A stretch of DNA of 64,000 nt from Candidatus Promineifilum breve (GTDB lineage Bacteria > Chloroflexota > Anaerolineae > Promineifilales > Promineifilaceae), in contig NZ_LN890655.1 in NCBI RefSeq assembly GCF_900066015.1, positions 1-64,000 of the forward strand, given 5' to 3'. Below, one piece after another: positions 21,075 to 39,415 of the stretch; the first letter of the stretch is position 1, and every line of letters starts with the position of its first letter. The position numbers were made by a program, and so were the translations under genes. The notes beneath the pieces are model-generated. The model worked only from the letters and a program-made list of their open reading frames with translations, did not search any database and was not told where the DNA came from.

Positions 21075-21215
21075 GGGCAGGGGGCAGTGGGCGATCCGAC
21101 CGCCCACTGCCCCTGATTACTGATCTACTCGCCCAAAACCCGCCACCCGCCACCCGCCACCCGCCACTCGCTACCTGCTACCTGCTACCCGCTGCCCACT
21201 GCCCACTGTCCCCTG
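21064..21215. repeat. Long mixed heptamer array upstream of the Usp-pst cluster
   Basis: A first inverted block (GGGCAGTGGGCG and CGCCCACTGCCC) is followed by CGCCACC units that drift through CGCCACT, CGCTACC, TGCTACC and CGCTGCC to CACTGCC and CACTGTC. All are in 7-base phase from about 21129 to the end. The gradual change shows how units diverge within an array. Confidence 0.88.
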
Positions 21216-26137: not shown

Positions 26138-26168
26138 ACAGGCAAGTGATACTATTTCACTTGCCTGT
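26138..26168. terminator. Hairpin terminator after pstB
   Basis: ACAGGCAAGTGA (26138-26149) and TCACTTGCCTGT (26157-26168) form a perfect 12-bp stem with a 7-base loop. It lies between pstB and the convergent minus-strand gene ending at 26185, so it could stop both. Confidence 0.7.
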
Positions 26169-29663: not shown

Positions 29664-30278
29664 TCATTCCGGCTCGATGCGTAGCCACTCATGGCGCAAC
29701 ACGCGCGTGGCCGCGTCGAAGCAGTAGTAATGCCCGCCGTCGCGACCCGGCTGGAGGTGGTGGAAGGCGATTGGCTCGCCCAGGAGATGCAGTAGGTAGA
29801 GTGTCCCCACCGCTCCGTGGGCGACAATGGCGATGTCGGCTTCGCTTGCAGAAACCGAGCTTTTTCTTGAAAGCTCGGTTTCTACCACAGCCTCAACCGC
29901 CCGCACGATCCGCGCCTGCGCCTGGTGGGCCGTCTCCCAACCGCGCACACTCTCCTCCGGCCGCTCGAACAACAGGCGGGCGGCGACGGCATGTTCCGCC
30001 TCGGGCAAATAGCCGGTTGACGAGCGGTCGATCTCGCCCAACGCCGGCCGCACCTGTGGTTGTAGGCCCAAATGCGCGGCGAGGATTCCCGCGCCATCGA
30101 GCGCCTTTTGCTCATCGCTGCAATAGATTGCGCCGAGGCCATTCACCCAGGGGCGGGCCAGCATGGCTGTCATCCGCTGGCGGCCGCGCGGCGACAGCGG
30201 CCAGCGCGGCACGGGCACGGCTGGGTCTTTTATCACGTCCGGGTGGGAGATATAGTACACGTCGGGCATCTTGGTCAT
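29664..30278 (-). CDS. Divergent histidine-phosphatase-fold (phosphoglycerate mutase-like) protein
   Basis: Encodes 204 aa. The fold is suggested by VYYISHPDV near the N-terminus, a YCSDEQKALDGA segment, a Glu in LGEIDRSSTGYL and IVAHGAVGTLYLLHLL near the C-terminus. The canonical RHG motif is SHP here and the second-site Arg is replaced, so phosphatase activity may be altered or lost. Residues around 136-148 (ETELSRKSSVS) come from a palindromic repeat inserted in frame. It may share a transcript with the two genes upstream on this strand. Confidence 0.7.
   Translation of the reverse strand: MTKMPDVYYISHPDVIKDPAVPVPRWPLSPRGRQRMTAMLARPWVNGLGAIYCSDEQKALDGAGILAAHLGLQPQVRPALGEIDRSSTGYLPEAEHAVAARLLFERPEESVRGWETAHQAQARIVRAVEAVVETELSRKSSVSASEADIAIVAHGAVGTLYLLHLLGEPIAFHHLQPGRDGGHYYCFDAATRVLRHEWLRIEPE
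29850..29883. repeat. AGAAACCGAG palindrome inserted in a coding frame
   Basis: AGAAACCGAGCTTT (29850-29863) and AAAGCTCGGTTTCT (29870-29883) are a perfect 14-bp inverted repeat with a 6-base loop. The same element occurs between genes at 35405-35438 and in an eroded form at 37253-37301. Here it is translated. Confidence 0.88.
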
Positions 30279-35366: not shown

Positions 35367-35404
35367 AACATGAATTAACTGTTTACACCCGATGATTAAC
35401 AAAT

Positions 35405-35438
35405 AGAAACCGAGTTTCGGCCGAGAAACTCGGTTTCT
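35405..35438. repeat. AGAAACCGAG palindrome, intergenic copy
   Basis: AGAAACCGAGTTTC (35405-35418) and GAAACTCGGTTTCT (35425-35438) form a perfect 14-bp stem with a 6-base loop between the bactofilin-like gene and the next membrane protein gene. It may act as a terminator or attenuator. Confidence 0.85.
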
Positions 35439-35455
35439 ACTGATGAGGAGCGAGC

Positions 35456-35947
35456 ATGAAACGAGAAAATATCGTGTGGGGCATCTTCCTTATCCTGCTG
35501 GGGATAGGGTTTCTGGTCTATCAGCTCAACCCCGGTTTGTTCGGCGGCTTTCGCTGGCCGTTGATCCTGGTGGCTCTGGGGGCAATCTTCACGCTTGGCT
35601 CGCTGATTGGCCGCGTGGGGGGGATGATGATCCCCGGCCTCACTTTATTGGGGCTGGGCGGCATCTTCTATTACCAAGACAGCACCGGCAATTGGGAGAG
35701 TTGGGCCTATGTCTGGGCGCTGCTGCCCGCGCTGGCCGGCCTGGGCATGGTGATTGGCGGCCTCTATGACCGCGAATTGCGCCAGGCGCGCGGGGTGGGG
35801 CTGATGATGTTCCTCGGTGGGCTGGCGGCCTTTGCCATCTTCGGCGGCTTCTTCGGCCTGGGGCCGGGTATCCTGCGCTACTGGCCGGTGCTGGTGATCC
35901 TGGCCGGGTTGTGGTTGCTCCTGCAAGCCTTGCGGACGAAAAAGTAA
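35456..35947 (+). CDS. LiaI/LiaF-like membrane protein
   Basis: Encodes 163 aa with about six short hydrophobic helices and a pattern of paired Gly-rich segments (WGIFLILLGIGFLVYQL, WPLILVALGAIFTLGSL, YWPVLVILAGLWLLLQAL). This resembles the DUF5668/LiaF transmembrane module used in envelope-stress sensing. The next gene, convergent, has the same module joined to a toast-rack domain. RBS GATGAGGAG precedes ATG. Confidence 0.75.
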   Translation: MKRENIVWGIFLILLGIGFLVYQLNPGLFGGFRWPLILVALGAIFTLGSLIGRVGGMMIPGLTLLGLGGIFYYQDSTGNWESWAYVWALLPALAGLGMVIGGLYDRELRQARGVGLMMFLGGLAAFAIFGGFFGLGPGILRYWPVLVILAGLWLLLQALRTKK

Positions 35948-35948
35948 A

Positions 35949-35985
35949 GGGGACGGCCGACCACGTTGATTGGTCGGCCGTCCCC
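35949..35985. terminator. Bidirectional terminator hairpin between convergent genes
   Basis: GGGGACGGCCGACCA (35949-35963) and TGGTCGGCCGTCCCC (35971-35985) are a perfect 15-bp stem with a 7-base loop. It begins just after the stop of the plus-strand gene and lies 40 bp from the end of the convergent minus-strand gene. Confidence 0.75.
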
Positions 35986-37252: not shown

Positions 37253-37301
37253 AGAAACCGGGTTTCGGCGTAGCGGCTGTGCTCGCCGAGGCCGGTTTTC
37301 T
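37253..37301. repeat. Eroded AGAAACCGG palindromic element
   Basis: AGAAACCGG (37253-37261) and CCGGTTTTCT (37292-37301) bracket a GC-rich centre containing GGCGTAGCGGC. The core GTTTCG.CGTAGCGGC is shared with the hairpin at 46362-46397 read on the minus strand, linking the two families. Confidence 0.6.
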
Positions 37302-37336: not shown

Positions 37337-39415
37337 ATGAAGGAATATCAGACCGGACAGATCCGCAATATCGCCCTCGTCTCGCACAATGGCGCCGGAA
37401 AAACGACGCTGGTCGAGCGCATCCTCTTCAAGACCGGGGCGATCACTCGCATGGGCAATGTGCTCAATGGCACGGCCCATATGGACTTCGAGGAAGAGGA
37501 AGTGGCCCGCAATAGCTCCATCGCCACGGCCATTGCCCCCGTCGAATGGAAAGGCGTCAAGCTGAATCTGCTGGACACCCCCGGCTTCCTGGACTTCGTC
37601 GGCGAGGTGAACAGCGCCATGAAAGTGGTCGACAGCGCCGCCGTGCTGGTCGAGGCCGTCTCCGGCGTCGAGGTCGGCACCGAGGCTGTCTGGGCCGTCA
37701 CCGACGCCTACAAGCGCCCGCGCATCATCATCGTCAACAAGATGGATCGCGAGAACGTGCGCGTGCGGCGGGTCATGGAGAGCATCAAAAACAATCTCCA
37801 CGGCCATTTCGTGAACCTGCAATTGCCCATCGGCGAGGGGCCGGGCTTCAAGGGCGTGGTCGATCTGCTGCACATGGAGGCCCGGCTGGGCGAGAAGGGC
37901 GACAAGGCCCCCATTCCGGCCGATATGCTGGCCGCGGCCGATGACGCGCGCGCCGACCTGGTGGAGGCCGCGGCCGAGGGCGACGACGAACTGCTGGAGA
38001 AATTCCTGGAAGGCGTCGAACTGAGCGGCGCGGAAGTGGCGCGCGGCTTGAAGGAAGCCACCTCCAGCGGCGTCATCGTGCCCATCCTCTACTGCGCCGG
38101 TGAGAGCGGCATTGGCGTCGATGCCTTGCTCGATGCCCTGGTAGAGATCATGCCCGCGCCCAACGAGACCGGCGGCTTCGAGGCCACCGACCCCAAGGGC
38201 GAGACGGTTCGCCGGGACGTCAGCGACACCTCGCCGCTGGCCGTCTTCGTCTTCAAGAGCCGCGAAGACAACTTCGGCAAGACGAGCTATCTGCGCGTCT
38301 TCGGCGGCACGTTGGCCTCCGATTCGCGTATCTGGGATAGCGTCCACGGGGCCGAGGTGCGCGTGGGCACGCTGCAAGTCTCCAGCGGCAAAGAGACCAG
38401 CCCGGTGACCAAGCTCCATGCCGGCGACATCGGCACGGTCGTTAAGCTGGGCGAGGTGACCACCAACGACACCCTGGGCGACCGCGGCAAGATGCTGACC
38501 CTGGCCCCCATCGTCCAACCCAATCCGCTGGCTTCGGTGGCCGTCCATCCGGTGACGCAGGCCGACACGGCCAAGTTGAGCCAATCGTTGAACCGGCTGG
38601 TGGCCGAAGACACGACCCTGCGCTGGTCGACGGAGCCATCGACCCACGAGACGATCCTGGCCGGCATGGGCATGGCCCATCTCGACATCGCCATCCACAA
38701 GGCGCTGTCGAAGTTCGGCGTCCATCTGCGCACGACGACGCCCAAGGTTCCCTACCGTGAGACGATCACCAAGACGGCCGACGCCGACTACACCCACAAA
38801 AAGCAGACCGGCGGCGCGGGCCAATACGCCCGTGTGGCCCTGCGCGTGGAGCCGGTGGAGGAATCGCGCGGCTTCGAGTTCGCCTCGGAGGTCTTCGGCG
38901 GCGCGGTGTCCGGCCCGTTCGTGGCCGCCACGGAGAAGGGTTGCCGCCAGGCGCTGGAAGGCGGCGTGGTGGCCGGCTACCCGGTGGTCGGCGTGCGCGT
39001 TGTCATCACCGACGGCAAGATGCACCCCGTCGACTCCAAGGAAATCGCCTTCCAGACGGCCGGCCGCGAGGGCTTCAAGCAGGCCGTGCTGAAGGCCGCG
39101 CCGATGCTGCTGGAGCCGATCTACGAGGTGACCGTCACCGTCCCGGCCGACAACATGGGCGACATCCTGGGCGACATGAACTCCCGCCGCGCCCGCGTGC
39201 TGGGCATGGACCAGGAAGGCAACAAGAGCATCGTCCGCGCCGAAGTGCCGCTGGCCGAGATGCAGAACTACGCCGCCGACCTGCGCTCGATGACCCAGGG
39301 TCGCGGCGTGTTCGGGATGAAGTTCATGCAATACGGCCGCGTGCCCAGCCATTTGCAGGAAGAACTGGTGACCAAGCTGCGCAAGGAACGCGAGGCGCAC
39401 GAGAACGACGAGTAA
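37337..39415 (+). CDS. Elongation factor G paralogue (EF-G2-like GTPase)
   Basis: Encodes 692 aa, normal EF-G length. Domains: GTPase with P-loop SHNGAGKTT (about 16-24), switch II LDTPGFLDF and NKMD; then domain II, III, IV (YTHKKQTGGAGQYARV, about 480) and V. The P-loop differs from the AHIDAGKTT of housekeeping EF-G, as in EF-G2-type paralogues, so this may not be the main translocase. No str-operon genes (rpsL, rpsG, tuf) are adjacent, which agrees. It could act in translocation, ribosome recycling or stress. The C-terminal HENDE abuts a heptamer array. Confidence 0.88.
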   Translation: MKEYQTGQIRNIALVSHNGAGKTTLVERILFKTGAITRMGNVLNGTAHMDFEEEEVARNSSIATAIAPVEWKGVKLNLLDTPGFLDFVGEVNSAMKVVDSAAVLVEAVSGVEVGTEAVWAVTDAYKRPRIIIVNKMDRENVRVRRVMESIKNNLHGHFVNLQLPIGEGPGFKGVVDLLHMEARLGEKGDKAPIPADMLAAADDARADLVEAAAEGDDELLEKFLEGVELSGAEVARGLKEATSSGVIVPILYCAGESGIGVDALLDALVEIMPAPNETGGFEATDPKGETVRRDVSDTSPLAVFVFKSREDNFGKTSYLRVFGGTLASDSRIWDSVHGAEVRVGTLQVSSGKETSPVTKLHAGDIGTVVKLGEVTTNDTLGDRGKMLTLAPIVQPNPLASVAVHPVTQADTAKLSQSLNRLVAEDTTLRWSTEPSTHETILAGMGMAHLDIAIHKALSKFGVHLRTTTPKVPYRETITKTADADYTHKKQTGGAGQYARVALRVEPVEESRGFEFASEVFGGAVSGPFVAATEKGCRQALEGGVVAGYPVVGVRVVITDGKMHPVDSKEIAFQTAGREGFKQAVLKAAPMLLEPIYEVTVTVPADNMGDILGDMNSRRARVLGMDQEGNKSIVRAEVPLAEMQNYAADLRSMTQGRGVFGMKFMQYGRVPSHLQEELVTKLRKEREAHENDE

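What the first reader, a model, noticed from the sequence alone, without database searches (positions are those of the whole stretch)
29850..29883. Perfect palindromic element inserted in frame in a phosphatase-fold gene
A 14-bp-arm AGAAACCGAG palindrome, present between genes at 35405 and eroded at 37253, is translated here as ETELSRKSSVS between two core segments of the fold. This parallels Rickettsia palindromic elements, mobile repeats that insert in frame into proteins, but in a different lineage with a different sequence.
Basis: partly seen in the sequence, partly recalled or inferred. Interest (0 to 1): 0.65.

Follow-up and report, generated by a model that had tools for sequence, protein, structure and literature searches.

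The report
Mobile hairpin repeat inside protein genes
A 34-base mirror-image DNA repeat, present in more than a hundred copies in this bacterium and linked in a relative to a known type of DNA-copying enzyme, has landed inside a phosphatase gene and several other genes without breaking their reading frame; this is a new example of a known phenomenon.

Summary
Window 29850-29883 is a perfect palindrome (14-bp arms, 6-base loop) read as ETELSRKSSVS in a histidine-phosphatase-fold gene (29664-30278, minus).

It is one of at least 100 genomic copies: 44 exact-arm copies (control 0); 124 for a loose pattern (control 4). Copies occur in all 8 genomes of the genus searched. Stem positions covary. Close pairs are nearly always inverted with the same ends facing (15 of 18).

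In genome G002 (same genus) an intact REP-associated tyrosine transposase (RAYT) gene is bracketed by this very palindrome; in G014 (another genus) a decayed relative is too. So this is a RAYT-linked REP/REPIN-like family, not a Rickettsia palindromic element. Its own host has no close RAYT.

About 14 of 114 copies lie inside called genes. The cleanest insertion is in an alpha-glucosidase gene: all 23 other loci shown lack the palindrome, and the six same-genus ones are exactly 36 bp shorter. An older copy in aroB is shared, decayed but in frame, by three species.

In-frame REPs and REP dimers are published, so the kind is known; the family and its dated empty sites appear new.

The parts
29850..29883 (.). 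Perfect palindromic element, 14-bp arms, 6-base loop TTCTTG; read in frame as ETELSRKSSVS on the minus strand
29664..30278 (-). Host gene: histidine-phosphatase-superfamily (branch 1) protein, 204 aa; element between the segment ARIVRAVEAVV and the segment ADIAIVAHG
   Evidence: ORF; Pfam PF00300, E 2.7e-14; orthologues have 8 fewer residues here
35404..35439 (.). Second perfect copy (15-bp arms), intergenic, 16 bp before the ATG at 35456
37253..37301 (.). Eroded copy resembling the long (47-bp) variant with an inner hairpin, intergenic, upstream of the EF-G-like ORF at 37337
   Evidence: other long variants

Best explanation
The element is one copy of a REP-type repeat family (short palindromic hairpins recognised and spread by RAYT single-strand DNA transposases). 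Inferred mechanism: the hairpin forms on single-stranded DNA; a RAYT bound to it cuts and joins single strands and places copies, often as inverted doublets, mostly between genes. At the one clean site a copy added 36 bp (34-bp palindrome plus 2), that is 12 codons, and most reading frames through it are free of stops; so a copy that lands in a tolerant loop or linker can be kept and is then simply translated. Shown here: copy number, covarying stem, doublet geometry, RAYT genes bracketed by the same palindrome in two related genomes, empty sites in orthologues, decay of an old in-frame copy. Inferred: that this RAYT moved the copies in the present host (which now lacks a close RAYT), that single-stranded DNA is the intermediate, and that the inserted peptide is merely tolerated.
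For: Copy number and controls. Stem: pair 13-20 of the 32-mer is T-A in 82 and C-G in 19 of 101 copies with no mismatch, 15.4 non-pairs expected when shuffled; pair 8-25 is A-T 83, G-C 16, G-T 2 (this pair was partly constrained by my search patterns, pair 13-20 was not). Doublets: of 18 neighbours within 100 bp, 15 are in the same inverted arrangement, 0 in the opposite inverted one. RAYT: G002 ORF 615-1184 (NCBIfam NF047646 REP-associated tyrosine transposase, E 1.1e-14 but 54.5 bits against a cut-off of 80) lies between copies at 575-608 and 1198-1233/1281-1316; the G014 remnant (64% identical over 42 residues) lies between two copies and contains a third. 16 of 35 distinct RAYT-homologue loci have palindromes with arms of 13 bp or more on both sides against 0 of 86 control loci (three duplicate loci removed by hand; Fisher 1e-10). 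Empty sites: alpha-glucosidase, 23 of 23 non-own loci shown lack the palindrome, and all 6 same-genus ones are exactly 12 codons shorter. Depletion in genes: 14 of 114 inside called ORFs while 83% of the fetched sequence is called coding.
Against: The present genome has no close RAYT: best hit 28-31% identical at C1:556454, flanked by a different palindrome. The REP hallmark foot GTAG is absent: base -3 is G in only 7 of 109 copies, although TA often precedes the first G of the core. 19 of 35 RAYT-homologue loci do not have such palindromes on both sides, some because the contig ends. At the phosphatase itself the length difference is 8 codons, not 12, and no orthologue closer than 48% was found except a broken contig covering residues 7-56 only.
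Confidence: 0.82

Rival explanations
1. The palindromes are functional RNA or DNA signals (terminators, mRNA-stability hairpins or operator sites) kept by selection at each site; the few in genes are accidental overlaps.
For: 91 of 114 copies are intergenic; the stem is kept paired by compensatory changes.
Against: The terminator scan finds only short sub-hairpins at the two window copies, on a noisy background. Of 100 copies not inside genes the neighbours are 61 co-directional, 21 divergent, 14 convergent and 4 at locus edges, so no concentration between convergent genes. Rfam finds nothing. It does not explain in-gene copies with empty orthologous sites or the RAYT bracket.
Confidence: 0.08
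2. A miniature element (MITE) of a DDE transposase with TA target duplication.
For: Ends are often TA...TA (A at -1 in 106 of 109; T at -2 in 64; T at +1 in 61, A at +2 in 73 of 109).
Against: 34 bp leaves no room for two transposase ends plus spacer, and flank symmetry is as well read as an extended palindrome. The net insertion at the clean site is 36 bp, not the 34 that TA duplication of a 32-bp core would give. A RAYT, not a DDE transposase, is bracketed by the repeat. I did not search DDE families.
Confidence: 0.05
3. The residues at 29850-29883 are ordinary protein sequence that happens to resemble the repeat.
For: Net length difference is 8 codons rather than 11-12; the loop differs in length among homologues.
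Against: 34 bp of perfect palindrome with the family's exact arms; the four closest orthologues have nothing like it.
Confidence: 0.02

Closest known systems
REP/REPIN repeats with RAYT (TnpA-REP) transposases (PMC2817692, PMC3116915: passages; PMC6006769: passages and the section on REP-like sequences)
   Same: 20-40 bp palindromic repeat in high copy, mostly between genes, with inverted doublets; RAYT gene bracketed by cognate repeats; each RAYT lineage with its own repeat; REPs inside RAYT genes in frame also known
   Different: No GTAG/GTGG foot; near-perfect palindrome, 15-3/4-15 with each arm itself nearly 6-3-6 in the RAYT-bracketing form; no close RAYT in this host
TIRtrons / TIRYTs (Di Nocera et al. 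2013, PMC3733652; passages read)
   Same: RAYT-like gene flanked by inverted repeats that lack GTAG, some self-complementary, that form a dispersed repeat family with dimers
   Different: Described there as moderately abundant; in-frame TIR copies not seen in the passages I read
In-frame REPs in genes (same paper, PMC3733652)
   Same: REPs, single or dimeric, translated inside genes including known enzymes
   Different: Here empty sites in same-genus orthologues and a shared decayed copy give direction and relative age
Rickettsia palindromic elements (mentioned in PMC3733652; details otherwise recalled)
   Same: Palindromic, dispersed, in frame in proteins
   Different: CGTC-tagged, and CGTC repeats lack a dedicated transposase, according to PMC3733652; sequence unrelated; here a RAYT is associated
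Small dispersed repeats of cyanobacteria (Elhai et al. 2008; recalled, only cited in papers listed)
   Same: Very small mobile hairpin repeats, also in genes (recalled)
   Different: Paper not held, not compared

Membership tests
RAYT-linked REP/REPIN | Short palindromic repeat, high copy, mostly extragenic | tested here: met
RAYT-linked REP/REPIN | Cognate RAYT gene bracketed by copies | tested here: met
   G002 intact and G014 decayed RAYT; but no close RAYT in the window's own genome
RAYT-linked REP/REPIN | GTAG/GTGG tetranucleotide at the 5' foot | tested here: not met
   -3 base G in 7 of 109; only TA+G shared. Footless structures are described for some RAYT subclasses and for TIRtrons, so it is filed as a RAYT-linked repeat, not as a canonical GTAG REP
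RAYT-linked REP/REPIN | Inverted doublets | tested here: met
   15 of 18 close pairs in one inverted arrangement
RAYT-linked REP/REPIN | Cutting and joining of the hairpin by the RAYT | not testable with these tools
   needs biochemistry
TIRtron (TIRYT plus self-complementary TIR) | RAYT-like gene flanked by non-GTAG self-complementary repeats that are also dispersed | tested here: met
   G002, 38 copies by the pattern
Rickettsia palindromic element | CGTC tag at one end | tested here: not met
   flank frequencies show no CGTC; tag named in PMC3733652
Rickettsia palindromic element | Insertion in frame in proteins | tested here: met
Rickettsia palindromic element | Rickettsiales host | not tested
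DDE-transposase MITE | Terminal inverted repeats matching a DDE element, target duplication | tested here: inconclusive
   TA...TA ends common but net insertion 36 bp at the clean site; DDE genes not searched

The most novel reading that the evidence does not exclude
A RAYT-linked repeat family without the GTAG foot has an architecture that suits life inside genes: it added 36 bp (12 codons) at the one clean dated site, relatives' repeats are often 33 bp (11 codons), and the commonest form is stop-free in five of six frames (read from the sequence). Copies thus pass through proteins as neutral passengers, and some become lasting protein segments that outlive their palindrome (aroB in three species), a traceable route from mobile DNA to protein sequence, in a host that has lost the transposase.
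Probability: 0.35. Interest if true: 0.55.

Novelty: new member of a known kind. Interest (0 to 1): 0.42.

Why it matters
It gives a dated series for how small mobile hairpins enter proteins: a fresh, perfect copy with empty sites in six same-genus orthologues, an older copy shared by three species and decaying in frame, a doublet translated whole in a restriction enzyme, and a transposase candidate in a sister genome. It also extends RAYT-linked repeats without the GTAG foot to this lineage, where many RAYT loci each carry their own long near-perfect palindrome.

Tried and rejected
Pfam Y1_Tnp as a bait for the transposase found three IS200-like/RAYT genes in the own genome, none near copies of this palindrome; the RAYT bracketed by the palindrome scores only E 0.032 in Pfam and was found because it sits next to another Y1 gene in G002. 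Protein search of the named genome collection gave two relatives of the phosphatase only, one of them (Comamonadaceae, 48%) useful. The best same-genus phosphatase hit (G007) is a broken contig: similarity stops after residue 56. The AlphaFold model of the phosphatase (two-sequence alignment) had mean pLDDT 40 and is not used. Solved-structure alignments for the alpha-glucosidase and dehydroquinate synthase were too distant for insertion length; same-family orthologues replaced them. Frame preference: of 13 in-gene copies whose phase I read, 8 are in the ETE..SVS frame, 4 in the RNR..GF frame, 1 in the third; the common flanks TA...TAG would make stops in the other two frames, but the numbers are too small for a claim. 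Terminator role: weakened. Literature: searches showed no description of this family; that covers only the open PMC library and those search terms.

Counts and limits: the 114 copies analysed are those in fetched stretches (two overlap, and about ten of the 124 hits were never listed by the tool and so not examined). Gene calls are from my own codon-usage script trained on the window, not from an annotation. Many relatives are fragmented assemblies.

Full report
OBSERVATION. At 29850-29883 the window holds AGAAACCGAGCTTT-TTCTTG-AAAGCTCGGTTTCT, a perfect palindrome with 14-bp arms. The minus-strand ORF 29664-30278 (204 aa, His_Phos_1 E 2.7e-14) reads through it as ETELSRKSSVS, residues 133-143. 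A second perfect copy lies between genes at 35404-35439 and an eroded, longer one at 37253-37301.

COPY NUMBER. In the window's own genome (5.03 Mb, three contigs) the exact-arm pattern has 44 places, reversed control 0. A loose pattern has 124 places, control 4. A stricter two-variant pattern has 106 in this genome and occurs in 19 of 59 genomes searched: all 8 of the genus (1 to 106 copies), 9 of 27 others of the family, 2 of 24 outside the family. I fetched stretches around the listed places and analysed 114 hits, two of which overlap. Contig C2 (1.0 Mb) carries 59 and C1 (4.0 Mb) 55, a strong enrichment on C2 (p 6e-14).

ANATOMY. Of the 114, 101 have the same 32-bp core length. The stem is held by paired changes: position 13-20 is T-A in 82 and C-G in 19, never mismatched, against 15.4 non-pairs expected on shuffling. 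Position 8-25 also varies in pairs, but part of the collection was found with patterns that constrain it. The loop is asymmetric, which gives each copy a direction. The base before the core is A in 106 of 109 short copies, and the commonest ends are TA ... TAG. Eighteen neighbouring pairs lie within 100 bp; 15 of them are inverted with the same ends facing and none is inverted the other way, the geometry of REP doublets. Four listed copies are a longer 47-bp form with an inner hairpin.

TRANSPOSASE LINK. The genome's three Pfam Y1_Tnp genes have no copy nearby. In G002, same genus and 38 copies, a 1.9-kb stretch holds an ORF (615-1184, minus, 189 aa) that matches NCBIfam 'REP-associated tyrosine transposase' at E 1.1e-14, below that model's cut-off, with an HYH motif visible in its sequence. 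It is bracketed by this very palindrome: one copy just past its stop and two before its start. In G014, another genus of the family, a decayed relative (64% identical over 42 residues, middle missing) is bracketed by two copies and contains a third. Other homologues in relatives are bracketed by palindromes of the same build but other sequence, typically 15-3-15 with each arm itself nearly a 6-3-6 hairpin. Counting palindromes with arms of 13 bp or more (one mismatch allowed): 16 of 35 distinct homologue loci have them on both sides, 6 on one, 13 on none; of 86 control loci (other genes from the same set of genomes) 0 have both, 11 one, 75 none (three loci fetched twice were removed by hand; Fisher 1e-10). 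The window's genome has only a distant homologue (28-31% identity) with a different palindrome, so the family there is orphaned as far as this search can see.

IN GENES. With a codon-usage caller, 83% of the fetched sequence is coding, yet 14 of 114 copies lie inside called genes, 12 of them well inside; 9 more overlap a gene end. Hosts include an alpha-glucosidase, a fused shikimate kinase / dehydroquinate synthase (aroKB), a radical-SAM protein, an amidase-domain protein, membrane proteins with weak to moderate PMT-family matches, and the phosphatase. A type ISP restriction enzyme carries a whole doublet in frame inside its specificity domain. Two adjacent paralogous membrane proteins, 33% identical, carry copies at the same aligned position that differ only by paired changes; independent insertion and gene conversion are both possible.

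EMPTY SITES. For the alpha-glucosidase I examined 24 loci, one being the own gene: none of the other 23 has the palindrome, and the six same-genus ones (G002 to G007, 75-82% identical in the scripted alignments, 74-83% in the genome search) are all exactly 12 codons, 36 bp, shorter. For aroB I gave 30 loci; of the 28 non-own ones that span the site, G006 has a decayed but still alignable version in the same frame and G005 part of one (with an undetermined base), while G003, G004 and the rest lack it: an old insertion that has outlived its palindrome. For the phosphatase, the four closest orthologues (three from the family, one Comamonadaceae, 43-48%) are 8 residues shorter at the site. Since the palindrome alone is 11 codons, either a few codons were lost with the insertion or the ancestral loop was shorter. 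This is the weakest of the three cases.

MECHANISM. Best reading: a RAYT-linked REP-type repeat, spread through single-stranded hairpins, whose copies are mostly tolerated between genes and occasionally in tolerant positions of proteins. The association, geometry, empty sites and decay are shown; the catalytic step, the single-stranded intermediate and neutrality are inferred. Location in a loop is inferred from alignment; the structure model of the phosphatase was too poor to use.

RELATION TO WHAT IS KNOWN. Nunvar et al. (PMC2817692, passages) define RAYTs bracketed by inverted REPs. Bertels and Rainey (PMC3116915, passages) describe inverted doublets. Di Nocera et al. (PMC3733652, passages) report REPs inside genes, head-to-head dimers, GTAG repeats in several phyla including Chloroflexi, and TIRtrons with non-GTAG repeats, some self-complementary. 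Quentin et al. (PMC6006769, section on REP-like sequences and passages) report atypical footless structures and REPs inserted in frame in RAYT genes. The present family fits the RAYT-linked class but fails the GTAG test, so it is best filed near TIRtrons. It is not a Rickettsia palindromic element: no CGTC tag, unrelated sequence, RAYT link. The literature searches showed no description of this family; they cover only the open library.

VERDICT. Real, well explained, a new member of a known kind with unusually good evidence of insertion and decay.

Noticed in passing
L187:1431-2033, L192:1265-1846, L167 (other genomes): RAYT homologues of another subclade carry a 33-bp palindrome inside the gene; in L187 it is translated in frame as QICLFSEKRQI. 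REPs inside RAYT genes are published for one subclass (PMC6006769).
   Followed up: partly
L116:963-3143 (own genome C2:174813-174955): Type ISP restriction-modification gene with a whole inverted doublet of the element and its repetitive spacer translated in frame inside the specificity domain.
   Followed up: partly
L090:457-4780 (own genome C1:2047726 and 2049911): Two adjacent paralogous membrane proteins (33% identical) carry the element at the same aligned position, the copies differing only by paired changes.
   Followed up: partly
own genome contigs C1 and C2: Copies are about four times denser on the 1.0-Mb contig C2 than on C1 (59 vs 55); whether C2 is a separate replicon is unknown.
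   Followed up: no
L016:900-2120: An IS200-like transposase gene of the own genome is surrounded by arrays of several other short palindromes, so the genome hosts several such repeat families.
   Followed up: no
window 21081-21113, 26138-26168, 35949-35985: Three further perfect palindromes unrelated in sequence; the last lies between the convergent genes ending at 35947 and 36025 and has a T-rich tail on the minus strand, as a terminator would.
   Followed up: no
window 30230-30260 (minus strand): The N-terminal motif of the phosphatase-fold gene and its close orthologues is S/T-H-P-D/N-V; the usual RHG motif (recalled) is not kept, so its activity is uncertain.
   Followed up: no
L020 (G007 contig C537): Phosphatase orthologue at 74% identity ends abruptly after residue 56 in unrelated sequence that looks like an assembly artefact.
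   Followed up: no
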